A stretch of DNA of 44,518 bases. Origin: Bacteroidota bacterium (GTDB lineage: Bacteria; Bacteroidota; Bacteroidia; AKYH767-A; OLB10). Shown here in pieces: positions 2,134-42,176 of the stretch. The translations under genes were made by a program, and so were the position numbers. Each line of letters opens with the position of its first letter. Position 1 is the stretch's first letter. The notes under the pieces were generated by a model. It saw only the letters and a program-made list of their open reading frames with translations, ran no database searches and was not told where the DNA came from. Location: positions 1 to 44,518 of the forward strand of contig JANXSD010000045.1 in the NCBI GenBank assembly GCA_025352785.1, given 5' to 3'.

Positions 2134-3399
2134 ATGAATCGTTCTCTACAAATTTGCTTGATTGCAATCTGTTTCTTCTTAATTGGTAAGCTGAATGCTA
2201 CCGACTTAATAGTATCTTCAGGTGGTGCTGGTGGTGCATATTCTACAATTAATGCTGCTGTTGCAGCTGCAAATTCAGGAGATAGAATAATAGTGTATCC
2301 AATATCTACGGGCGCTGCTTATTCAGAAGGGACAATTACTCTTACAAAAAGTATTCAAATTCTTTCTGCAAATGAAGGCGCTTATTTTACTGTAGATGCA
2401 AATGTAAATATAACTCCAGCAGCAGCTGGCATGAGTGTTTCTATTATGGAAATGAAACTCGTAACTGGATCTATACAAACTGCAATAAATGCTCCAGCAG
2501 GTAGTAGGTGTATTGTAAATGTTATTAATGACTCAATTATAAATGGCGGAGTATTTTTTGATGCCAATAATTACAATGTCACTGTTGCAAATTCATATAC
2601 CGGTAATTCTGTATATGTAAACTTCGGACGAGTATTAGGTAACGTAATCAATACAACAATTTCAGCGGCTTTATATGGTATTCATGTGAGTACTGATGCC
2701 GTTGCAACCTCAGATTCTATCTTGATTATTGGTAATAAAATTACAGTGATCAATACAAGTGCTTCTATGGCTGGAATTTATTGGGGATCAACTTCTCAAT
2801 ATTTTCAGATCTTAAATAATTTTATTTATTTTCCATTTCCCTATTATTATGGATATGGAATTAATGTAATTACAAGTAAAAATTCAAATGCAGGAACTAA
2901 TCTTATTGTAAATAATACTATTCAAAAATTAAGTACTTCTTATTATCTATATTATGGAATAGCTTGTGCAACGGCGGCATCTGCATACACAGAAATTCAA
3001 AACAATATGGTGTCTTCTCCATTGGTAAATTATCAATATATTTACTGCAATGGGGGAACTTTTTCCGTGCACTATAATTTAGTTACAACTCTTGCATTTT
3101 CAGGATTTACAAATGATGGAACTAACATTATCTTAACAAATACTACACTTGATGCGAATGGTAAAATTACCGCTACTGTTCCAACATCAAATGCTATCAA
3201 TGCAGGCAACCCAGATTCAGCATTTGTTGATATTAATTTAACACGAAATGATGCGGGTGCTTATGGTGGATCTTTCACTTTAGATAATTATTTTCCAAAT
3301 GGAGCTAACGATTGGGCGCGCGTTTTTTATATGGTAGCACCAAGAAGAGTACTCGTAAATGGAACAATCAATGTACGTGCTGACGGTTATGATAAATAA
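2134..3399 (+). CDS. Secreted right-handed beta-helix (pectin-lyase-fold) protein
   Basis: 421 residues. The N-terminus is a signal peptide: MNRSLQ, a hydrophobic stretch ICLIAICFFLIG, and probable cleavage after KLNA near residue 22. It is followed by the typical beta-helix opening in which a gap-prone Gly/Ala-rich segment leads into YSTINAAVAAANSGDRIIV. The rest has the hydrophobic, Asn-rich rungs of parallel beta-helix proteins (NNTIQKL, IQNNMV). The last part, with NAINAGNPDSAFVD and a GAYGGS motif, is the usual C-terminal cap of such Bacteroidota proteins. No T9SS sorting domain is present, so it is exported to the periplasm or released. A catalytic role (polysaccharide lyase) is not supported by any residue I can identify. 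It directly precedes, and may be co-transcribed with, the giant adhesin gene. Confidence 0.75.
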   Translation: MNRSLQICLIAICFFLIGKLNATDLIVSSGGAGGAYSTINAAVAAANSGDRIIVYPISTGAAYSEGTITLTKSIQILSANEGAYFTVDANVNITPAAAGMSVSIMEMKLVTGSIQTAINAPAGSRCIVNVINDSIINGGVFFDANNYNVTVANSYTGNSVYVNFGRVLGNVINTTISAALYGIHVSTDAVATSDSILIIGNKITVINTSASMAGIYWGSTSQYFQILNNFIYFPFPYYYGYGINVITSKNSNAGTNLIVNNTIQKLSTSYYLYYGIACATAASAYTEIQNNMVSSPLVNYQYIYCNGGTFSVHYNLVTTLAFSGFTNDGTNIILTNTTLDANGKITATVPTSNAINAGNPDSAFVDINLTRNDAGAYGGSFTLDNYFPNGANDWARVFYMVAPRRVLVNGTINVRADGYDK

Positions 3400-3434
3400 T
3401 GGTTTTCTCCTTCTTATTTCTAAATCGAAACAGC

Positions 3435-6400
3435 ATGAAAAGTCTGACGAAAATACTCGTATTCATGTTGCTGATTTCATCCAATCTATTTGCACAAGTA
3501 GGTAGAGGGAAAATAACAGCAGCTGAATATTACTGGGATACAGAACCTGGTCAGGGACTTGGTATAGCTATGAGCTTACAAGGAAACCCTAATGATGCAA
3601 TAAGAACTGCGGTACGGTCATCGTCAATAAATTTGTCAGCGGGGTTGCATACATTTAATATTCGTATGCAAGATTCTCTCGGACATTGGGGAACGGTTTT
3701 TACCTCAGTCATGAGTGTCGAAAATGCAATCACCGCAAGAAATATTTCTGCTTCCATTGCACGTGTTTATTGGGATACTAATTTAGCAGGTGCAACAGCA
3801 TTAATTATCTTTAATGGTAATGCAACCAATGCAATTAATTCTTTTGTTCAATCTACTCCAATAAATTCTTTTGCAACTGCAGGTTTACATACCTTATCTG
3901 TTCAAGTACGTGACAATACTGGCCAATACAGCCCACCATTTACAACAGTAGTTAGCGTTGAAAATTTAATTACAGCTCGTACTCTAGCTGCATCATTCGC
4001 TAGAGTTTATTGGGATGGGAATTCAGCGTCGGCAACAGGATTAATTTTCTTAAATGGAAATTCTACTAATGCAATTAATTCATTCGTTCAGTCATCTGCA
4101 ATTGCAACTTTTTCAATTTCCGGATTGCATACTTTAAGCGTAGAAGTAATGGATAATACAGGTCACTATAGTCCAGCTTTTACAACTGCAATAAGTGTAG
4201 AAAAGCAAATTAAAGTTGATAGAAGCATTAAAGTTATTGATGGCCGTGTTTGGTATGATGCAAATGTTCCATCCTTACCAAATATGATCGCGTTCGATGG
4301 TGCTTTTAATGATGCTTTTGAAACTGCATTTAAATCTCTTGCAGCACCTTCAACAGGGATGCATACAATCAATATTCAACTTCGTGATTCAGCTAACGGT
4401 TGGGGACCAACATTCACCACTGCATTGAGTGTTGAAGGGCCTATTGCTTACAGAAATATTAATATATCAGCAGGTCAGTTTTACTGGGATAATGATACAA
4501 CACAAAATACAACAACACTATTGGCATTCGATGGCGCATTTGATAATGCCATTGAAAGTGTTTACAAATCTTCAATAGCATTAATGCCTGTAGGATTACA
4601 TAATTTATGTGTTCGTGTTATAGATGTTGCAGGTAATTGGGGTAAAGCTTTTACTACTGCAATTTCAATTGAAAATGCTATTACTGCTCGCGATCTTAAA
4701 GTGGTGGAAGGGGAAGTGAGCATTGATAATTTTCCGCCACTTATTGTAATTGGAATGAACGGAAATTTCGGTAACGCCATTGAACAAGCTCAAACAACTT
4801 TGTTAAGTAATGGAATTCCCACGGGGCTTCATAAACTTAATGTTAGAATGAAAGGACGTGATTCAAATTGGGGTTCCTATTTTACCACTGCTCTATTAGT
4901 TTCACCTTGCGCAAGTACGCCAACTCCAATAGTTACAAATCAGCGACCATTAAGTTTTTGTAATGGTGATAGTACTGTGTTGATTGCAACTCCTGGATTT
5001 AATTCGTATCAATGGGTTAATAATAATGCAGTTGTAAGTACAGCATCTAGCATTACTGTAAAAAATTCAGGATCTTATATTGTTATCGCTACAGATGCTA
5101 CTAATTGTCCAGGTGCATCATCAGCAGTTATTGTGGATAAACATAATCCAATCGTAAATATTACTTCTAATGCCCATTTCTGTCAGGGTAAAGTGGATAG
5201 TTTGATTGCAACTTCTGGATTTCAATCGTATCAATGGACGGGTGGTGCTACAACTTCCAAAATGGTAGTTAATAACGGTGGATTGTATGCTGTAACCGTT
5301 TCTGATTTACTTGGTTGTACGGGCACTTCTTCAGTAAATATTAATATGCTTACACAACCTGCAACTCCTATAATTACGAGTAGTGGCCCAGTTGCTTTTT
5401 GTCCTGGAACTATCCTAACATTATCTTGTGCTTCTGTAGGTAATTTATTGTGGAGTACAGGACTCACTACATCATCAATATCTACTGACTCAAGTAGTAG
5501 TTATAATGTGGTTGTCACTAACGCAAATGGATGTTCAACTTCATCACAATATATATCGACACATAAATTTCCTTTAGCTGTGGCTTCTATTTCTTCTAAT
5601 GGTCCAACTACTTTTTGTGCAGATTCAAGAGTGAATTTGACAGCTAATTTATCAGCGAGTTATAATTGGTCGAATGGTGCAACTACACAAAGTATTTTAG
5701 TAAATTCAAGTGGAAATTACAACGTTGCTATTGTTGATAGTGATGGTTGTACTGCAAATTCTTTAGTAACCTCAATTATTGTAAATCCATTGCCGCCAAT
5801 TCCAAATGTTACATCAAGTGGTGCGTTAAGTTTTTGTAATGGAGGAGCAGTTACCCTTTCGTCCAATGCATCAACAAATAATTTATGGAATAATGGAGTA
5901 ATAACTTCGTCTCAATATATAACACTTTCAGGAGTTTTTGTGGATACTGTTTTCAATCAATATGGTTGCAAAGCTTGGTCTACACCTATTGTTGTTGATG
6001 TACATCCTGTTGCTACCATTTCAGCAAACGGTCCCTTAACATTTTGCGCTGATGCTTCTGTTCAACTAACTGCACATCCTAATTCTGGTGTAAGCTATTT
6101 ATGGTTTAATGGATCTACTTCTCCATCAATTAATGTTAATATTACTAATGATAGTGCTTGGGTAATTGTAACTGAAATAGCAGGTGGTTGTAATGATACA
6201 ACATCGGTTAATATTCATGTGAACCCTTTGCCAATAGGTGTAATTACTCCAAATGGATCAACTACATTCTGTAGTGGAAGTGCGGTTACATTTAATACTT
6301 CTGGTGACCCTCATACAAAATATCAATGGTATCAAAATGGACAACCATTGATGTATGCTGTTTGGAATATTTATAGTAGTCAATATGTATATTACCATGT

Positions 6401-9400
6401 AGAAGGATATTCATTTACTGCAACAAGTAGTGGATCTTTTTCTGCAATGGATATCGATACGTTAACAGGATGTACTTTAATGACTAATGCAATTGTTGTT
6501 TTAGTGAATTCAGCTGCGCAACCAGTTATTTCTGCAAATGGTGGTACTACATTATGTGTCGGTGCAAATACGTTACTTAGTAGTACCTCTGCTATTACTT
6601 ATCAATGGTCGCAGGGTTCTTCAGCACAACTAATTACTGCTGCTGTTTCAGGATATTATACTGTAACAATTACTGATGGCAACGGCTGTACTAATACATC
6701 TGTACCAACATTAGTATCGTTTCATCCTACTGCAAGTATAAACAGTAGTGGCCCAACTACTTTTTGTTTAGGTGGAAATGTTAACTTAACAGCACAACCA
6801 CTTGGTACTTATTTGTGGTCGAATGGATCAACTTCTGCTTCTATAAATGGAATTGCAACTGCTGGAACTTATACTGTTTCTGTAACGGATGTGAATGGTT
6901 GTAGTTCCATATCATCGCCTACTTCTATTAATGTAAATCCATTGCCTAACGGATCTATTTCTGCAGGTGCATCCACAACTGTTTGTCAAGGTAATTTTGT
7001 TTCTCTAAATACTTTAGGTGACCCTAATTCAATTTATCATTGGTATTTAAATGGATCTGTCATTTTGTATGCTTCGTACAATTATCAATCTGGTCAAACA
7101 TATTATTTACCTATAAGTGGATATACTTATAACATTTATGTTAGTGGAACATATTCTGCTGAAATAATTGATACATTAACTGGATGTAGTCGGATGACAA
7201 ATAGTATTGTTGTAAATGTTGTTCCACTTCCACTTATTCATGTTACTCAATCAAGTTCGATTTTATGTTTTGGTGGAAATGGTGCTGCATTAACTGCAAG
7301 TGGAATGGGAACTGTTGCGCCCTATAATTATTCATGGAATACCGGTTCTACAACTGCAAGTATTTCTTCACTTGTTGCTGCTATTTATACTGTGGAAGTT
7401 ACTGATAATATCGGATGTAAAAGTGATACTGCATTTAACATCACTCAACCTACGGCTGTAAATCCATCATTGTTAAGTCCAAAAAATACGCGCGGATACA
7501 ATACAAGTTGTTATGGAGTTGCTGATGCTAGTGTATCAATATTAGCAGGCGGAACCTCACCTTACACGTATTTATGGAATACAAATGCAACGACTTCCAC
7601 AATTTCTAATGTTGGTCTAGGTTCATATTCAGTAACAATTTCAGATGCGAATGGTTGTATTGGTATTGGAACTATTTCATTGATCGAACCACCCGTTGTA
7701 ACATTATCATTTTCTTCTGCAACTTATATTGGTGGAAATGAAATTCGTTGTCATGGAGAAAGAGGAGCAATTGCTGCACACCCTTCTGGAGGAACTGGCC
7801 CGTTTACATATCATTGGTCGGATACTCAATTAACTCAAATAGCTGATACACTTTTTGCCGGAAATTATTCTGTTATAGTAGCAGATTCAGAAGGTTGTTC
7901 AGTTTCAGGTTCTTTCACGTTGCATGAACCAGGGGCGATGGTTAGTACATTAACAGCACTCGATCATAATGGATATTCTATATCATGTTATGGATTATCA
8001 GATGGCGCAATTAATTCAATTATTAATGGCGGAAATTTAGTCTATCACTACTGGTGGAATGATTCTATCGCAACGCCAAACAGAAATAGTTTGCAAGTTG
8101 GTACCTATCAATTATTAGTAACCGACACGAATGGTTGTCAATTGTTGGACTCTATTCGTCTTACACAGCCAACACAAATTACTACACACACTATTGGATC
8201 AACTTTAAATTGTTTTGGAGATTCCAATGGTTCTGCATCGGTTGTTGCACTTGGTGGCGATCCATCTTATACTTACAAGTGGTCTACGAATGCTACTGGT
8301 TCTGCAATCAGTAATTTGTCGGCTGCTACATATATCATAACAGTTACTGATAGTCGTGGTTGCTCGGTTATTGATAATGCGGTAGTAAATCAACCACCGC
8401 AATTAATAGCATATGCATTTGGAACATACATTGGTTGTGGTTCGCAAATTGGTTTACTTTCAGGGACTGCAGCAGGTGGAGTAGCTCCTTATGGATATCA
8501 ATGGAGTAATGGCTCTACTGCTGATTATCAAATTAATTTGTCAGTAGGAAATTATTCTCTAACTGTAACTGATAGTCATGGTTGTCTTGATACTGCTGCT
8601 ACAATTATATTAAATCCTCCAATATTAGTTTCTTCATTTAATGTTGTAACGGATTCCGTTAAATCTATATTATCTGTTAATGTTTCAGGAGGAGTTTCAC
8701 CATATATGTACTTGTGGAGTGATGGAAAATCAACGCCTTCGGATACTGTTCCCAATACACATCCGTCAGGTATTTATTCGGTTATTGTAACTGATGCAAA
8801 TGGATGTACATCGAGGGGTTCTGCATTTGTTGTAGGTACTGGTTGTACAATTCATCAAACAATTAGTCATGTTGATGTTTCGTGTAAGGGCGGTTCTAAT
8901 GGGAATGCTTCTACTTTTGTAACTGGTGCAATTGGTCCTATTAGTTATGTATGGAATACTAGTGGATTAACTACCTCATCAATAACAGGTTTAGTTGCTG
9001 GAAAATATTATTTACAAGTTTCTGATTCGATTGGTTGTGTAAATACAGATTCCGTAATAATTGCTGAGCCTTCATCACTACTAGTTACTGCATTACCATC
9101 AAATTTAATAATTTGTCACGGTGGAAATTCAATTGTTAGCGTAAGCGCAACGGGTGGAAAAACACCTTATCTGAGTGGAATTGGAACATTCTCACAAGTT
9201 GCTGGAAATACACATTACATCGTTGTTGATCAAAATGGCTGTTCTGCGTTTGCTGATATAAATTTAAATGATCCTGGTTTGTTGCAAGCAACAATATCTT
9301 CAAATAAAGATACTATTTGTAATGGTGATAATGTTACGATTACTTTTACTGGACCAGCAAATGGATCTGTAAAATATCAAGTGAACAGTAATCCGTCTAC

Positions 9401-11393
9401 TCTTATTTCTTTGAATATATTGGGATCAGCTACTTTAACATTGAATGCAATTACTTCGAATACAATAATTAGTTTATTGCAAGTAGATAGTGCAAGTTGT
9501 AGTAATGTGATTTCACAAATTAAAACAATAAATGTTACACCATTATCTCCTTGGTATTGTGATGCTGATCATGATGGATATTCTAATGGAACGTTTATCA
9601 TGGCATGTACTTCCCCTGGAATTAATTACTCATTATCACTAATTAACAGTACTATCGATTGTAATGATAGTAATTCAACTATCCATCCTTTTGCATTAGA
9701 AGTCTGTGGTAATTTTATTGATGATAATTGTAACGGAATTATTGATGAAGGATGTATAGGTAGTTGTACAAACGCACCAACAGCATTTGCTGGAAATGAT
9801 ACAATAATATGTGCAGGAACTAACATTTTATTGCATGGTTCAATTGGAGGTAGTGCTTCAAATGCTACATGGACTACAAGCGGAACAGGTTCGTTTACTC
9901 CATCATCAGCTTCGTTAAATGCAATCTATAATCCATCTACATCAGATTATTCTAATGGATCAGTAATTTTAACATTGACTACAAATGCTGCATTACCTTG
10001 CTCGTCTGGTATTGATCAAATGAATGTACTATTACAAGCATTGCCTACGGATGCTGGTATAATAAGTGGAACTGCTGATTTCTGTAATCCGTCTTCTGCA
10101 TTTACTACTTCCTATAGTGTCGGTGCAGTTTTAGGAGCATCAACATATACTTGGTCAGTTCCACCAGGAGTTACTATTTTATCAGGACAAGGAACAACCG
10201 CAATCGCTATTAGTTTTATTAATTCATATATCCATAATGGAGTAGGAGGGTTAGTTGGCGTTAAGACTAAAAACAGTTTTGGTTGTGTAAGTAGTTTGGC
10301 AAGCATTAAACCAATATCAGCACAGCTTACAATTCCGGTTCAGCCTGGTTCTATATCTGGTCCTGATAAAGTTTGTCCTGGCGATATTGCAACGTATTCT
10401 ATTGCAATTGTGGCACGCGCAATTAGATATAATTGGTCATTGCCAATTGGTGCAACAATTTTATCTGGTGCAAATTCTAATATTATTACTGTTCAATATT
10501 CTGTTGGATTTGCAGGTGGGACAATTGGTGTTTCTGGTGTTAATGGTTGCGGAATTAGCCCTGCTAGAACTCGTATTGTAACTTTAAATCTTCTTTCTGC
10601 ACCAGTTTCTATTACGGGTCCTACATCAGGTATGTGTGGCATGACTGGTGTTACGTATTCATTAGCATCTAATGTTATTGGAGCAGCAAGTTATACATGG
10701 AATGTTCCTGTTGGTGTAAGCATTGTTGGCACTAATACAGGTACATCCTTACTAGTTGATTTTAATAATACTTACGTTGGAGGAAACATCACAGTTGCTG
10801 CAGTAAATAATTGTGGAAAGGGCGTAACTCGTTCTATAACTGTAATTGCTGCACCAGCATTTCCAAGTATTATAGGAGGTCCTTTAGCGATATGTACTAA
10901 TGTAGGATCAGGTTATAGTTTGTCAACAATAACAGGAACTTCAAATTATATTTGGACCACTACACGAGGATTAACGATTTTAAGCGGACAAGGAACTAAA
11001 AATATATCTTTAGTTGCATCAACAGTAGTTACTGGCCAAACGATCACAGTAAAGGCTTCAAATTTATGCGGTACTTCGAATACGCGTGTATTAGATAATA
11101 TTTCTGCTTCAAACTGTCCGCGTATTGGCGATGATAAATCAGCATTTAATTTGATTGCATATCCAAATCCTGTAACTGACAAATTAACAGTTGAGTTTTA
11201 TACTGAAAAGGAAGAGATTTATTCTGTTCGATTATTTGATTCAACAGGCAGATTAATTTTAGCAGAAGTGAAAACCGCAATTTCAGGTACTAATCAAAAG
11301 GAAATTTGTGTACGTGGAATTTCGAGTGGGATTTACATTCTTCAATTCAAACTTAATGATAAAACAGAGCAAATCCGTGTCGTAATTGAATAA
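3435..11393 (+). CDS. Giant modular cell-surface adhesin with SprB repeats and T9SS sorting domain
   Basis: About 2,652 residues from the ATG at 3435. An in-frame ATG at 3399 overlaps the previous stop (TAATG), but only the start at 3435 gives a clean signal peptide (MKSLTKILVFMLLISSNLFAQ). Order of modules: six repeats of about 75-80 residues (about 26-490) with a YWD motif and a GLHT...RD...FTT..SVE end; ten Ig-like repeats (about 502-1265) opening with an FC.G motif and closing with VTD.NGC; nine SprB-type repeats (about 1270-1950), mostly with GG..PY.Y.W cores; a MopE-like putative metal-binding motif (about 2040-2108: CDADHDGYSNG, DCNDSN, DDNCNGIIDEGC); four PKD-like domains (about 2206-2560); and a type A sorting domain (from about 2573: AYPNPVTDKLTVEF) ending in IRVVIE. 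SprB is the gliding adhesin of Flavobacterium; surface display and adhesion are inferred here. A terminator follows at 11413. Confidence 0.9.
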   Translation: MKSLTKILVFMLLISSNLFAQVGRGKITAAEYYWDTEPGQGLGIAMSLQGNPNDAIRTAVRSSSINLSAGLHTFNIRMQDSLGHWGTVFTSVMSVENAITARNISASIARVYWDTNLAGATALIIFNGNATNAINSFVQSTPINSFATAGLHTLSVQVRDNTGQYSPPFTTVVSVENLITARTLAASFARVYWDGNSASATGLIFLNGNSTNAINSFVQSSAIATFSISGLHTLSVEVMDNTGHYSPAFTTAISVEKQIKVDRSIKVIDGRVWYDANVPSLPNMIAFDGAFNDAFETAFKSLAAPSTGMHTINIQLRDSANGWGPTFTTALSVEGPIAYRNINISAGQFYWDNDTTQNTTTLLAFDGAFDNAIESVYKSSIALMPVGLHNLCVRVIDVAGNWGKAFTTAISIENAITARDLKVVEGEVSIDNFPPLIVIGMNGNFGNAIEQAQTTLLSNGIPTGLHKLNVRMKGRDSNWGSYFTTALLVSPCASTPTPIVTNQRPLSFCNGDSTVLIATPGFNSYQWVNNNAVVSTASSITVKNSGSYIVIATDATNCPGASSAVIVDKHNPIVNITSNAHFCQGKVDSLIATSGFQSYQWTGGATTSKMVVNNGGLYAVTVSDLLGCTGTSSVNINMLTQPATPIITSSGPVAFCPGTILTLSCASVGNLLWSTGLTTSSISTDSSSSYNVVVTNANGCSTSSQYISTHKFPLAVASISSNGPTTFCADSRVNLTANLSASYNWSNGATTQSILVNSSGNYNVAIVDSDGCTANSLVTSIIVNPLPPIPNVTSSGALSFCNGGAVTLSSNASTNNLWNNGVITSSQYITLSGVFVDTVFNQYGCKAWSTPIVVDVHPVATISANGPLTFCADASVQLTAHPNSGVSYLWFNGSTSPSINVNITNDSAWVIVTEIAGGCNDTTSVNIHVNPLPIGVITPNGSTTFCSGSAVTFNTSGDPHTKYQWYQNGQPLMYAVWNIYSSQYVYYHVEGYSFTATSSGSFSAMDIDTLTGCTLMTNAIVVLVNSAAQPVISANGGTTLCVGANTLLSSTSAITYQWSQGSSAQLITAAVSGYYTVTITDGNGCTNTSVPTLVSFHPTASINSSGPTTFCLGGNVNLTAQPLGTYLWSNGSTSASINGIATAGTYTVSVTDVNGCSSISSPTSINVNPLPNGSISAGASTTVCQGNFVSLNTLGDPNSIYHWYLNGSVILYASYNYQSGQTYYLPISGYTYNIYVSGTYSAEIIDTLTGCSRMTNSIVVNVVPLPLIHVTQSSSILCFGGNGAALTASGMGTVAPYNYSWNTGSTTASISSLVAAIYTVEVTDNIGCKSDTAFNITQPTAVNPSLLSPKNTRGYNTSCYGVADASVSILAGGTSPYTYLWNTNATTSTISNVGLGSYSVTISDANGCIGIGTISLIEPPVVTLSFSSATYIGGNEIRCHGERGAIAAHPSGGTGPFTYHWSDTQLTQIADTLFAGNYSVIVADSEGCSVSGSFTLHEPGAMVSTLTALDHNGYSISCYGLSDGAINSIINGGNLVYHYWWNDSIATPNRNSLQVGTYQLLVTDTNGCQLLDSIRLTQPTQITTHTIGSTLNCFGDSNGSASVVALGGDPSYTYKWSTNATGSAISNLSAATYIITVTDSRGCSVIDNAVVNQPPQLIAYAFGTYIGCGSQIGLLSGTAAGGVAPYGYQWSNGSTADYQINLSVGNYSLTVTDSHGCLDTAATIILNPPILVSSFNVVTDSVKSILSVNVSGGVSPYMYLWSDGKSTPSDTVPNTHPSGIYSVIVTDANGCTSRGSAFVVGTGCTIHQTISHVDVSCKGGSNGNASTFVTGAIGPISYVWNTSGLTTSSITGLVAGKYYLQVSDSIGCVNTDSVIIAEPSSLLVTALPSNLIICHGGNSIVSVSATGGKTPYLSGIGTFSQVAGNTHYIVVDQNGCSAFADINLNDPGLLQATISSNKDTICNGDNVTITFTGPANGSVKYQVNSNPSTLISLNILGSATLTLNAITSNTIISLLQVDSASCSNVISQIKTINVTPLSPWYCDADHDGYSNGTFIMACTSPGINYSLSLINSTIDCNDSNSTIHPFALEVCGNFIDDNCNGIIDEGCIGSCTNAPTAFAGNDTIICAGTNILLHGSIGGSASNATWTTSGTGSFTPSSASLNAIYNPSTSDYSNGSVILTLTTNAALPCSSGIDQMNVLLQALPTDAGIISGTADFCNPSSAFTTSYSVGAVLGASTYTWSVPPGVTILSGQGTTAIAISFINSYIHNGVGGLVGVKTKNSFGCVSSLASIKPISAQLTIPVQPGSISGPDKVCPGDIATYSIAIVARAIRYNWSLPIGATILSGANSNIITVQYSVGFAGGTIGVSGVNGCGISPARTRIVTLNLLSAPVSITGPTSGMCGMTGVTYSLASNVIGAASYTWNVPVGVSIVGTNTGTSLLVDFNNTYVGGNITVAAVNNCGKGVTRSITVIAAPAFPSIIGGPLAICTNVGSGYSLSTITGTSNYIWTTTRGLTILSGQGTKNISLVASTVVTGQTITVKASNLCGTSNTRVLDNISASNCPRIGDDKSAFNLIAYPNPVTDKLTVEFYTEKEEIYSVRLFDSTGRLILAEVKTAISGTNQKEICVRGISSGIYILQFKLNDKTEQIRVVIE
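3507..4907 (+). repeat. Six tandem YWD-type protein repeats encoded at the 5' end of the adhesin gene
   Basis: Six consecutive units of roughly 75-80 codons. Shared features are an aromatic-W/Y-Asp motif near the start (YYWDTE, VYWDTN, VYWDGN, VWYDAN, FYWDND; degenerate in the sixth), a central F/L-N/D-G-N/A-F/S element with N-A-I/F, and an end of the form GLHTL.V..RD....SP.FTT..SVE. Units 2 and 3 are the most alike, which suggests the latest duplication. Confidence 0.8.
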
Positions 11394-38142: not shown

Positions 38143-38925
38143 TTATTTAGTCTTTAGTTTTAATAATAAATCTTCACATTCATTTTTTGTGATTTGCTCA
38201 TCTTCGTTTCTGGGAACAATTTTTATCGCATTATTTAAATTCGCTATGGCTAATAATTTATCTCCATTATTATCTCTTTCTTGGTAGGTTAGTGCAAGTT
38301 GTAAGTAGTGAATTGCATTTAATGGTTCAAGTTTTATAGCTGTTTGAAAATTTGCAATTGCATTTTCATAACTTCCTCCTGGCATTTTACCAAAGAGAGC
38401 ACTAATCATTGCTCTTTCAAATGTGTTAAATCCAGCAACGATAGTATGCCACCTTCCTAAAATATGATACGGGCCTGGAAGTTTTGGATTTAATTTTATT
38501 GCTAATTCAGCTTCTGTTTTAATAAGTTTTGCATTACTTATTTTCGTTTTGAATCCAGCTTTTTCGCTTAATAAACCAATCGCTAAAGCATGTGCATAAT
38601 GTGCATCCGCGCTTTGATTGTTGATAACAATTGCCTTTTTTGCTAGGTAGTCAGCGGTTTCGTACCAACTGTATTTGCCAGTTGTTGCTTCTGGTAAAGC
38701 ATGTCCAATTTTTGAATATAAAATGGATGTATTTTGTAATAAATTTATATTATTCGAATCATTGCGAAGCAAATTTTTAAAGATCGAAATAGATTCATTA
38801 AGCTTGCCCTCAACTTCTAATTTATAGGCGTAGTTGTATAATTGTTGCTCTTTTATATTGTTTTGAGCCAGTATTAAATTTGGAAAAAGAAAAACTAGAA
38901 GAAGGAATGTTCGAAATTGTTTCAA
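38143..38925 (-). CDS. Secreted TPR protein resembling RMD (FAM82) proteins
   Basis: 260 residues. A signal peptide MKQFRTFLLLVFLFPNLILA is read from a TTG start at 38925. The rest is helical: LYNYAYKLEVEGKLNESISIF, DAHYAHALAIGLLSEKAGF, AELAIKLNPKLPGPYHILGRWHTIVAG and then AMISALFGKMPGGSYENAI, FQTAIKLEPLNAIHYLQLAL. The HxLGRW block and ALFGKMPGGSYENAI resemble the regulator-of-microtubule-dynamics family. Function in bacteria is not known. A periplasmic scaffold is a reasonable inference. Its upstream region is the octanucleotide array; no promoter is seen there. Confidence 0.75.
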   Translation of the reverse strand: MKQFRTFLLLVFLFPNLILAQNNIKEQQLYNYAYKLEVEGKLNESISIFKNLLRNDSNNINLLQNTSILYSKIGHALPEATTGKYSWYETADYLAKKAIVINNQSADAHYAHALAIGLLSEKAGFKTKISNAKLIKTEAELAIKLNPKLPGPYHILGRWHTIVAGFNTFERAMISALFGKMPGGSYENAIANFQTAIKLEPLNAIHYLQLALTYQERDNNGDKLLAIANLNNAIKIVPRNEDEQITKNECEDLLLKLKTK

Positions 38926-38942
38926 TTGTTATTTGCTTTTAA

Positions 38943-39254
38943 CTCTTTATCTCATAAACTTATTATCACAAAAACTCATTTTCTCATTAACTCATTTTCT
39001 TATTATCTCATTAACTCATTAACTCATTATCTTATTATCTCATTAACTCATTATCTTATTTTCTCATTAACTCATTATCTAATTTTCTCATTAACTCATT
39101 ATCTTATTATCTAATTAACTCATTATCTTATTATCTAATTAACTCATTATCTAATTTTCTAATTAACTCATTAACTCATTAACTCATTAACTCATTATCT
39201 CATTATCTAATTAACTCATTAACTCATTAACTCATTATCTAATTAACTCATTAT
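38943..39254. repeat. 39-unit octanucleotide tandem array, CTNATTWW type
   Basis: 39 consecutive 8-bp units with no insertion or deletion. From unit 5 on every unit fits CT(C/T/A)ATT(AA/AT/TT); units 1, 2 and 4 are more degenerate (CTCTTTAT, CTCATAAA, CACAAAAA). CTCATTAA and CTCATTAT dominate. On the minus strand, the direction of both neighbouring genes, most units read as TTAATGAG or ATAATGAG, so each holds an overlapping TAA/ATG. The right end encodes the last three residues and stop of the channel gene (stop at 39243-39245). The left end lies 17 bases upstream of the TPR start. Confidence 0.95.
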
Positions 39255-40229
39255 CTCGTAAGTACTTATTTTCCTTAAATCGATTGCAGTTCTTCCATCA
39301 TTTGCTTGAGTAATTACTGAAACAAATTTTGCATTCCAGATAAGATCTTGCCATTTATAAGATGATCTTGCATATACTTGTTGAACATAAGTATCATCGA
39401 TGGCCTTTATGTTTATTAAAAATTCTGCATCCACACTTTCAAAATCATCTTTTGTTAAATCTCTTAAAGGACTTTCATCATCAATAGGGTGTACAATAGT
39501 CCAAGACATTGCTAAGAAGCTAATTTTTTCAACTTCTAATTTTAATCGTTGAAATCTTCGAATTAACTTACCATCTACTTCCTCATTATAGGAAAATAAA
39601 ATTTGAGATTCAACTTCTATCAACTGATTTGATCGCGCATTCGTTATTCTAAACATTAATGCAGTAGATGCTTTGTCTACAAATCTTGGATTGGAGTAGG
39701 GGGCGATTAAAGCATTTTTACTGTATAATAATTTAGCTGTTGGTCGAGAAAATTTTCCATATAGCAATCCAGTAGCTAATGCGAATCCTAATAATCCAAT
39801 AAAGGATTCTATTGATGCTAAGCTGCTATTAAATGTTCCAGTTGGATTTAATCTTCCATAACCTACTGTAGTTAATGATTGAGCAGAAAAGAAGAAAATT
39901 TCTTCAAACTTTTGTAGTTCTGAAGAATAAATCATTCCACTAATTGCATTTGGATCGATTATGTAATAAAGTATAGCGAAAAGGAAATTCACTATCATAT
40001 AAGAGCAAGAAACGATAAGAAAGAACTTAGCCCACGACATAGTTACTAATGCATGGTAAATATTGATTAGGCTAAATTTATTTCCTCCTAAACGTGCAAT
40101 ATTGGCGGAACCATCTGGATTAAGAACTCTTTGATGTGCATTATTTGCATTGTTACCAAATCCAAATTCCGGAGCATCTTCTTTCCTTTTGATACTCGCC
40201 ATAAAACGAAATTTTTTTCCTGAAGCCAT
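39243..40229 (-). CDS. Inward-rectifier potassium channel (KirBac type)
   Basis: 328 residues. Two membrane segments (about 66-92 and 134-158) flank a pore helix and the K+ selectivity filter TVGYG (121-125, in FFFSAQSLTTVGYGRLNPTG). The cytoplasmic C-terminal half (about 165-328) has the Kir immunoglobulin-like fold: YSKNALIAPYSNPRFVDKAS, LMFRITNARSNQLIEVE and the DDESPLRDLT segment. The N-terminus carries the slide-helix region (ARLGGNKFSLINIYHALV). Cytoplasmic ligands in related KirBac channels include polyamines and phospholipids; none can be named here. The last three residues (IMS) and the stop come from the octamer array. A terminator of the gene upstream lies just before its start. 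Confidence 0.92.
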   Translation of the reverse strand: MASGKKFRFMASIKRKEDAPEFGFGNNANNAHQRVLNPDGSANIARLGGNKFSLINIYHALVTMSWAKFFLIVSCSYMIVNFLFAILYYIIDPNAISGMIYSSELQKFEEIFFFSAQSLTTVGYGRLNPTGTFNSSLASIESFIGLLGFALATGLLYGKFSRPTAKLLYSKNALIAPYSNPRFVDKASTALMFRITNARSNQLIEVESQILFSYNEEVDGKLIRRFQRLKLEVEKISFLAMSWTIVHPIDDESPLRDLTKDDFESVDAEFLINIKAIDDTYVQQVYARSSYKWQDLIWNAKFVSVITQANDGRTAIDLRKISTYEIMS

Positions 40230-40307: not shown

Positions 40308-41024
40308 TTAATCATATGATTCAAATCGGATTGCCTTTTTATCGTAGCCCATGCCTTCGATTCGTTGTCTTGCTTCTTTTAACATATCTGCCCATCCGCA
40401 AATAAAGAAAAATGCAGGTCGTCGATCTTTAAATATTTCTTCATACACTGCATGTACATAACCTGATTTGCCATTCCAACCTTCGTTGGTTCTTGATAAT
40501 ACAGGTAGAAATTTAAATTCAGGATATTCTTTTTCTAGGTCTTCCATTTCTTTACGATATACAATATCTTTTTCCCATCGGTTTCCAAACACCATATAAA
40601 TATTTTTATGAGGTGCTTTACGGTTAATTATATCCCATAATTGAGCTCTTAAAGGTGCGATCCCAGTTCCAGTACAAATGAAGCAGATATCATGTTCAAT
40701 TACTTCAGGTAAAACAAATTTTCCGAGCACTTTTGAAATCATTACTTTACTTCCAATTTCAAAGTTCTTAAACATGTAAGGCGTCCCTAATCCATTTGGA
40801 TTTAAAACGATACACAATTCAAAAATATTATCATTACTTGGCGCAGAGGCGATTGAATAACTTCTATTAGTATATTTTGAATCAATTGGTAAATCGAGCA
40901 TAATAAACTGTCCAGCTTTAAAAGTAAACGGGATTTCATCCGGAACTTTGATGAAAAACCGCTTAACGATATCATTTTCATCAATAATATTAACAACAGT
41001 TGCTTCTTGAAATAGGTAAGCCAT
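40308..41024 (-). CDS. Ferredoxin-NADP reductase-like FAD oxidoreductase
   Basis: 238 residues. The FAD domain has the flavin motif RxYS as RSYSIAS (54-60), after FKAGQFIMLDLP (35-46). The NAD(P) domain has the GTGIAPL motif (119-125) and the terminal CGWADMLKEARQ, then a final short tail ending ESYD. The short, tail-capped form is like Fpr-type ferredoxin/flavodoxin reductases. It moves electrons between NADPH and a small iron-sulfur protein or flavodoxin; which one is not shown. It lies 75 bases past the xerD stop, behind a weak AT-rich terminator. Confidence 0.82.
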   Translation of the reverse strand: MAYLFQEATVVNIIDENDIVKRFFIKVPDEIPFTFKAGQFIMLDLPIDSKYTNRSYSIASAPSNDNIFELCIVLNPNGLGTPYMFKNFEIGSKVMISKVLGKFVLPEVIEHDICFICTGTGIAPLRAQLWDIINRKAPHKNIYMVFGNRWEKDIVYRKEMEDLEKEYPEFKFLPVLSRTNEGWNGKSGYVHAVYEEIFKDRRPAFFFICGWADMLKEARQRIEGMGYDKKAIRFESYD

Positions 41025-41099: not shown

Positions 41100-42002
41100 T
41101 TATCCTCTCGGATGAAATTGAAGGATGGCAGAGCGAAGATAATCTCGATCGAGATGCGTATAAATTTCAGTAGTAGTGATACTGCTATGTCCGAGCATTT
41201 CTTGCACTGCTCGAAGATCAGCGCCTCCTTCAATTAAATGTGTAGCGAAAGAATGTCGAAATGTATGTGGGCTAATAGTTTTACGGAGCCCTGTTTTGAA
41301 AAGTAAATCCTTTATGATCATAAAAATATAAACACGGCTAAGTTTTTTACCTCGTCTATTTAAGAAAATATAATCTTCGTGATTGGGTTGGATATTTATG
41401 TGACTTCGGTAGCTTTCGAGATAAATTTGTATTTGTTTGATAGCACTAGTTCCCATTGGTACTATTCGTTCTTTATTTCCTTTACCTGTTACTTTTACAA
41501 AACCAATATCTAAGTAAGTTTGACTTAATCGAAGATTTATGAGTTCAGAAACACGGAGACCGCAAGAGTATAATGTTTCGAGCATAGCTTTATTTCTTTC
41601 GCCTTCAGGCTTACTTCTGTCGATAGCTTCAAAAATTGTGTTTATCTCTTCAACAGTGAGAAAATCGGGTAATTTCTGACCAATTTTTGGGCCTTCAATT
41701 AACTCGGTTGGATCATCATTTATTTGATTTTCCATCAATAAATATTTGAAGAAAGCCTTCATTCCTGATAAAACACGTGCTTGCGTTCTGGCAGTCATTC
41801 CTAATTCGTTGATCCAGCCAATAAATTCCTGAAGTAAATCATGATCGACTTTTTCGGGTACTACTTGGATCTTTTTATAATCCATAAATTGGATAAACTT
41901 CTCCAAATCATGTAGATATGCTTCCAATGTATTGGCAGAGAGCGATCTTTCCAGTTGCAAATAACTTTTAAAACCTTTTAAATAGGGTTCCCATGCTTTC
42001 AT
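41100..42002 (-). CDS. xerD: Site-specific tyrosine recombinase XerD
   Basis: 300 residues from the ATG at 42002, which gives MKAWEPYLKGF; a start 17 codons upstream gives a hydrophobic stretch not seen in the family, so it was set aside. The N-terminal SAM-like domain (about 1-100) has the SANTLEAYLHDLEKF block. The catalytic residues are R150 (CGLRVSEL), K174 (VTGKGNKERIVP), H246 and R249 (SPHTFRHSFATHL), H272 (LGHSSITTTEIYTH) and Y281. XerD with XerC resolves chromosome dimers at dif and completes some plasmid or phage events. Xer sites are not visible here. Divergent aroQ is the usual neighbour in Bacteroidota. Confidence 0.93.
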   Translation of the reverse strand: MKAWEPYLKGFKSYLQLERSLSANTLEAYLHDLEKFIQFMDYKKIQVVPEKVDHDLLQEFIGWINELGMTARTQARVLSGMKAFFKYLLMENQINDDPTELIEGPKIGQKLPDFLTVEEINTIFEAIDRSKPEGERNKAMLETLYSCGLRVSELINLRLSQTYLDIGFVKVTGKGNKERIVPMGTSAIKQIQIYLESYRSHINIQPNHEDYIFLNRRGKKLSRVYIFMIIKDLLFKTGLRKTISPHTFRHSFATHLIEGGADLRAVQEMLGHSSITTTEIYTHLDRDYLRSAILQFHPRG

Positions 42003-42176
42003 ATTCTCTGTAAAGTTAATCCCATATAAAACAACTAATAATATCAAATGCATAATTGACGAATAATCTTTTTAAAACGATTATCCATCGGAATTAACTT
42101 TGATGAAAACTGTATTTTTATTCAGCCTTTAAGCAAATTATACATTATAATAATTTGGATTAATTTAGCGTCATAT

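What the first reader, a model, noticed from the sequence alone, without database searches (positions are those of the whole stretch)
38943..39254. Indel-free 39-unit octamer array between two genes
Thirty-nine 8-bp units run in exact phase for 312 bases with not one insertion or deletion, yet units differ at only positions 3, 7 and 8 after the first four. Slippage normally produces both indels and homogenised copies; here the length is held while bases vary within a narrow set (CT-[CTA]-ATT-[AA/AT/TT]). The unit on the minus strand carries overlapping TAA and ATG. This could be a protein or nucleoid-binding array, a replication or segregation site, a phase-variable spacer, or an RNA element in the TPR 5' region.
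Basis: seen in the sequence. Interest (0 to 1): 0.65.

Follow-up and report, generated by a model that had tools for sequence, protein, structure and literature searches.

The report
Stop-codon-anchored octamer array in operon
A 39-copy, 8-base tandem repeat has grown exactly at the junction of two operon genes that overlap or nearly touch in relatives; it belongs to a poorly described class of short repeats in Bacteroidota that sit directly after stop codons and, in the same genome, also flank small four-helix-bundle genes.

Summary
In detail: 39 octamers in one phase (38943-39254), the last 35 all CTNATTWW, no indels. "Indel-free" is not strange: the units show a 3-unit (24 bp) higher-order period (lag 3 P=0.006, lag 6 P=0.0015), so growth by whole-unit duplication keeps phase. 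The array is not between two independent genes. It fills the junction of an FNR-Kir-TPR operon; the Kir stop codon lies inside it, and in four same-family relatives Kir and TPR overlap or are 2 nt apart. Across Bacteroidota, arrays of this unit sit directly after a stop codon, with the C-free strand as mRNA (25/31 non-redundant cases within 25 nt, against 2/20 in the other sense, P=6e-7); other phyla show no such bias. Sister arrays in the same genome sit at contig ends, one directly behind a PF05635 four-helix-bundle gene. PF05635 genes across the class are flanked by short-period arms complementary to each other (17/34, against 0.9% of swapped pairs). Best reading: a neutral or selfish intercistronic repeat, probably a solo arm of that element type. 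Any regulatory effect is untested.

The parts
38939..39257 (.). octamer tandem array, 39.9 copies, full TRF extent; CT-rich strand is +, C-free (AATNAGWW) strand is -, which is the mRNA strand of both flanking genes
38975..39254 (.). 35 units with no departure from CTNATTWW; 3-unit (24 bp) higher-order period
38943..38974 (.). four edge units nearest the TPR gene, three of them degenerate (CTCTTTAT CTCATAAA CTTATTAT CACAAAAA)
39243..40229 (-). Kir-type inward rectifier K+ channel gene (IRK_C E=8e-20); its TAA stop (39243-39245) lies inside the array; same length as in relatives
38143..38925 (-). secreted-looking TPR protein gene, TTG start about 14 bp from the array edge
40308..41024 (-). FAD/NAD oxidoreductase (FNR-like), first gene of the FNR-Kir-TPR operon that is conserved in relatives

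Best explanation
The array is a (presumably transcribed) intercistronic repeat that expanded at the Kir stop codon, inside an FNR-Kir-TPR operon whose Kir and TPR genes overlap or nearly touch in relatives. It grows and shrinks by duplication of whole octamers and of 3-octamer blocks, so phase is kept. Both reading frames survive because the unit on the mRNA strand carries stop codons and the repeat sits exactly between the two frames. It belongs to a dispersed octamer family in this genome and to a Bacteroidota-wide class of short-period repeats anchored directly after stop codons with the C-poor strand as mRNA. Similar repeats form the complementary arms around PF05635 (23S-rRNA-IVP-like four-helix-bundle) genes that sit between operon genes. 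The window array has the polarity of such an upstream arm but no cargo gene and no partner arm, so it is most likely a solo arm of this kind of selfish repeat rather than a host regulatory site. Shown: position, phase, higher-order period, absence in relatives, strand and stop-codon bias, arms around PF05635 genes. Inferred: that solo arrays and PF05635 arms share one origin, that growth is by duplication, and that there is no host function.
For: Array anatomy. Relatives L052, L053, L054, L072 have FNR-Kir-TPR with Kir and TPR overlapping or 2 nt apart, Kir of equal length. Stop-codon anchoring in the C-free sense: 32/39 Bacteroidota arrays within 25 nt; non-redundant 25/31 against 2/20, P=6e-7, no bias in other phyla. 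Sister arrays in the own genome: C20 (3 bp from a stop codon, same sense), C61, and C86, which starts 1-2 nt after the stop of a PF05635 gene; CTCATTAT occurs in its array and CTCATTAA in the repeats on the other side of that gene. Four Flavobacteria loci and C86 have PF05635 genes flanked by such octamers. For 34 PF05635 genes, flank complementarity reached 14 or more in 17/34 against 0.9% of swapped flanks; GC skew was +0.34 upstream (30/34 positive) and -0.18 downstream (27/34 negative), near 0 in 353 control ORFs.
Against: The window array has no inverted partner within about 2 kb and no PF05635 gene beside it (neighbours). Most PF05635 arms outside this genome have period 7, not 8. Only 4 of 58 Bacteroidota CTNATTWW arrays lie within 200 nt of a PF05635 gene, so most arrays of this kind have no such cargo. 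Beyond those known cases, inverted partners of arrays are barely above control (9/58 against 4/58).
Confidence: 0.5

Rival explanations
1. A plain neutral minisatellite: a chance octamer at the stop/start junction (for example ..TAATGAG..) was duplicated by replication slippage and tolerated because it is the only non-coding spot in the operon. No link to PF05635 elements.
For: Octamer arrays of the same pattern occur in many phyla, outside Bacteroidota without stop-codon bias. The unit on the mRNA strand contains TAATG, like a stop/start overlap. No cargo or partner arm here.
Against: Does not explain why the bias to the C-free sense directly after stop codons is specific to Bacteroidota, nor the sharing of units with the repeats around the PF05635 gene on C86.
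Confidence: 0.33
2. A translational or phase-variable element: copy number sets the Kir-TPR distance, and overlapping UAA/AUG (21 UAAUG) lets ribosomes terminate and re-initiate along the intercistronic RNA, tuning TPR expression.
For: Genes overlap or nearly touch in relatives; 21 UAAUG in the intercistronic RNA; a predicted fold somewhat more stable than shuffles, z=-2.5, though the centroid is weak.
Against: The relay is broken by 12 of the 35 perfect units, which lack ATG (AATTAG, AATAAG), and by AAAATG units; other stop-anchored arrays (AAAATTAG in Flavobacterium) have no ATG at all; no relative keeps the array.
Confidence: 0.1
3. A DNA-binding, nucleoid or segregation array.
For: Regular 8-bp phase and AT-rich units.
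Against: 8 bp is not a helical repeat; absent from 60 relatives; position tied to stop codons and transcript sense, which a DNA site would not need.
Confidence: 0.03
4. Assembly artefact: the real array has another length or a collapsed sequence.
For: Sister arrays on C20, C61 and C86 end at contig ends, so the assembler failed in such arrays.
Against: This one is heterogeneous, lies inside a 44.5-kb contig and has a consistent operon on both sides.
Confidence: 0.04

Closest known systems
TAACTGA heptamer direct repeats of Beggiatoaceae, cyanobacteria and five Bacteroidetes (MacGregor 2015, PMC4679880)
   Same: Short-unit intergenic direct repeats, up to 43 copies, oriented relative to genes; contigs in Elizabethkingia often end inside the repeats; related strains have shorter intergenic regions without repeats; [quoted passage not shown]
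   Different: Heptamer with another sequence, mostly just upstream of start codons in Beggiatoaceae. The paper reports no general stop-codon anchoring, and the sections read do not mention flanking of PF05635 genes.
Cyanobacterial STRR heptamers and long simple sequence repeats (5-11 nt units; Mrazek 2007, as cited in PMC4679880; STRR from own knowledge)
   Same: Intergenic tandem repeats of 7-8 nt units, phase kept by whole-unit slippage.
   Different: Not described, as far as I know, as anchored to stop codons with one fixed transcript sense.
23S rRNA intervening sequences with S23/IVP ORF (Coxiella IVS, PMC4990558)
   Same: An S23p (PF05635-type) ORF between complementary arms (28-bp stem), called a selfish element; [quoted passage not shown]
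   Different: Located inside 23S rRNA; the passages read do not describe the arms as short-period tandem repeats. The window array has neither ORF nor partner arm.
Avd of diversity-generating retroelements (PF05635-like; PMC10053308)
   Same: Same protein fold family as the cargo genes flanked by such arms.
   Different: No reverse transcriptase or template/variable repeat was found or sought near the arrays.

Membership tests
Long simple sequence repeat / minisatellite (5-11 nt units) | head-to-tail copies of one short unit, beyond chance, phase kept | tested here: met
   TRF and unit read-out
Bacteroidota stop-anchored octamer arrays (class described here) | array within 25 nt of a stop codon with the C-free strand as mRNA | tested here: met
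   Kir stop inside the array, C-free strand is sense; class statistics
PF05635-flanking arm of an IVS-like element | PF05635 ORF adjacent | tested here: not met
   neighbours are Kir and TPR; the four PF05635 hits of the genome lie on C105, C86, C78 and C195
PF05635-flanking arm of an IVS-like element | complementary partner arm | tested here: not met
   best inverted match near the array is background
PF05635-flanking arm of an IVS-like element | G-rich/C-poor polarity after an upstream stop codon, inside an operon | tested here: met
TAACTGA repeats | heptamer TAACTGA | tested here: not met
   period 8, unit CTNATTWW
CRISPR or CRISPR-like array | repeats separated by unique spacers of equal size | tested here: not met
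   units are contiguous, no spacers
Structured RNA family in Rfam | match above the gathering score | tested here: not met
   no match in the window
Phase-variable contingency locus | copy number varies between cells and alters expression | not testable with these tools
   no second strain or reads; no genus-mates among the relatives searched

The most novel reading that the evidence does not exclude
Stop-anchored arrays and PF05635 arms are parts of one uncharacterised class of mobile element in Bacteroidota. An IVS-like unit inserts at stop codons inside operons, and its two arms stay complementary within each locus while their sequence turns over between loci, which implies one arm is copied from the other (for example by a reverse transcriptase in trans with the Avd-like four-helix bundle protein). 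The window array would be a solo arm.
Probability: 0.15. Interest if true: 0.85.

Novelty: new variant of a known kind. Interest (0 to 1): 0.45.

Why it matters
Short tandem arrays are usually filed as noise. Here they have a fixed place (directly after stop codons), a fixed sense (C-free mRNA strand) and a phylum (Bacteroidota), and similar short-period repeats form complementary arms around PF05635 genes, a very common family without known function. If the link holds, it gives a testable route to how these genes spread inside operons and what their protein does.

Tried and rejected
Search for the same array in 60 relatives and 395 genomes of the class: only the window's own genome. CRISPR-like array: no spacers. 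Rfam: nothing. Indel-free phase as evidence of function: rejected, since whole-unit and 3-unit duplication explains it. A UAAUG re-initiation ladder as the general function: rejected, because stop-anchored arrays in Flavobacterium lack ATG. Inverted partner arms as a general property of CTNATTWW arrays: only weakly above control. Chance truncation of genes by arrays as the cause of stop anchoring: in the window Kir has the same length as in relatives, and many arrays start 0-25 nt after a stop that is not part of the array. Viral contigs: a few short arrays, nothing informative. The literature library gave no paper on stop-anchored octamers or arms around PF05635 genes; subscription journals are mostly not held.

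Full report
What is there. TRF finds one array at 38939-39257, period 8, 39.9 copies, no indels. The unit order is not random: identical units recur at a distance of 3 units (P=0.006) and 6 units (P=0.0015) against shuffled order (15 lags were looked at), a 24-bp higher-order period. The sister array on contigs C20/C61 has a 24-bp period of near-perfect copies. Whole-unit and 3-unit duplication keeps phase, so the lack of indels needs no special cause. The restricted variation is what a few mutations spread by such duplication would give, although selection on the core cannot be excluded.

Genes. Both flanking genes are on the minus strand. On the right is a Kir-type potassium channel (IRK_C) whose TAA stop lies inside the array; on the left is a secreted-looking TPR protein whose TTG start is about 14 bp from the array. 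Upstream of Kir is an FAD/NAD oxidoreductase. In four genomes of the same family (L052, L053, L054, L072) the same three genes follow in the same order, and Kir and TPR overlap or are 2 nt apart; Kir has the same length where it is complete. So the array expanded exactly at a tight operon junction, and it is not a conserved part of the operon. CTNATTWW x4 was found in no other of 60 relatives or 394 further class genomes.

A class of arrays. Placing each array relative to predicted ORFs showed a bias only in Bacteroidota: the array lies directly after the stop codon of a gene whose mRNA strand is the C-free strand (32 of 39 within 25 nt). After collapsing homologous loci this is 25 of 31, against 2 of 20 for stop codons in the other sense (P=6e-7); outside Bacteroidota it is 6 of 27 against 5 of 21. 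Examples with different genes start on the stop codon itself, such as L106 and the L082/L097/L112/L156/L166 family. The window array fits this pattern. Gene calls were mechanical, and the titles of the records served as taxonomy.

Sister arrays and PF05635 genes. In the window's genome, arrays of related octamers (CATTAACC, CATTAGCA, CATTATCT) lie at C20:1-206, C61:11875-11955 and C86:3527-3734, all at contig ends. C61 and C20 share the same 24-bp block and may be two ends of one array (inference). C20 starts 3 bp from a stop codon in the C-poor sense. C86 begins directly after the stop of a PF05635 (23S-rRNA-IVP-like) four-helix-bundle gene; CTCATTAT occurs in this array and CTCATTAA in the repeats on the other side of the gene. 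Four Flavobacteria loci show a PF05635 gene flanked by octamers of the same kind, within 200 nt of the array. This led to a test: for 34 PF05635 genes of the class, the upstream and downstream flanks are complementary to each other (score 14 or more in 17/34, against 0.9% of swapped flank pairs; and 50% against 0.6% of control genes at 15 or more). They are built of period-7 or period-8 repeats and skewed: G over C upstream (+0.34, 30/34) and C over G downstream (-0.18, 27/34), with controls near zero. Most lie between same-strand genes; in this genome two sit between scoA/scoB-like and atpA/atpG genes, recognised from the sequence.

How it most likely works. The window array has the place and polarity of the upstream arm of such an element but no cargo gene and no partner arm. 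The preferred reading is a solo, neutral or selfish intercistronic repeat that grows by whole-unit duplication and is tolerated because it keeps both frames intact. Its likely side effect is to uncouple TPR translation from Kir (inference). A plain minisatellite without any relation to PF05635 elements is the main rival. Translational tuning (21 UAAUG; folding z=-2.5) is possible but untested, and stop-anchored arrays elsewhere lack ATG.

Known relatives. TAACTGA heptamers (PMC4679880) are the closest published repeats: they reach 43 copies, occur in some Bacteroidetes, and one set lies directly after a stop codon. IVS elements in 23S rRNA (PMC4990558) share the plan of a PF05635-type ORF between complementary arms. 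PF05635 resembles Avd of diversity-generating retroelements (PMC10053308). None of the papers found describes stop-anchored octamers or arms around intergenic PF05635 genes; the library holds open-licence papers only.

Limits. No reads or sister strains were available, so length variation was not tested. The own genome is a draft of 197 contigs and was only sampled. PF05635 loci were those with the best scores, not a random draw.

Noticed in passing
L298-L331 (PF05635 genes of the class): Four-helix-bundle (23S rRNA IVP-like) genes lie between same-strand genes and are flanked by complementary arms of period 7-8 repeats, whose sequence differs from locus to locus.
   Followed up: yes
L303, L313, L314, L322, L325: In five genomes the PF05635 gene sits before a thiolase gene (fadA-like, recognised from the sequence), apparently at the same junction, with different arm sequences in each.
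   Followed up: partly
L298 (G000:C105) and L301 (G000:C195): PF05635 genes between scoA/scoB-like and atpA/atpG genes; the C195 copy is interrupted by a stop codon.
   Followed up: partly
L224 (G000:C20:1-206) and L255 (G000:C61:11875-11955): Contig ends with the same 24-bp three-octamer block; perhaps one long array broken by the assembly.
   Followed up: partly
L290:9396-10044 (G000:C53): A short ORF resembling a DUF433-type antitoxin lies between heptamer arrays that look inverted to each other; other cargo than PF05635 may sit between such arms.
   Followed up: no
L257:2234-2276 and L288:17277-17340: Two nearly identical leader regions upstream of secreted-looking proteins carry different octamer arrays (AATGGTGT, TACTGGTG).
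   Followed up: no
L210:13350-13385, L280:13804-13838, L217:16502-16535: Short octamer arrays in the same genome within 8 bp of stop codons, without a PF05635 gene.
   Followed up: partly
window 3399-11393: A 2664-codon ORF, not examined.
   Followed up: no
window 41100-42053: A tyrosine recombinase (XerC/D-like) upstream of the FNR gene.
   Followed up: no
L110, L119, L141, L182, L185: Long octamer arrays (CTTATTTA, CTGATTTA; up to about 80 copies) in Photorhabdus and Pantoea, some open as reading frames.
   Followed up: no
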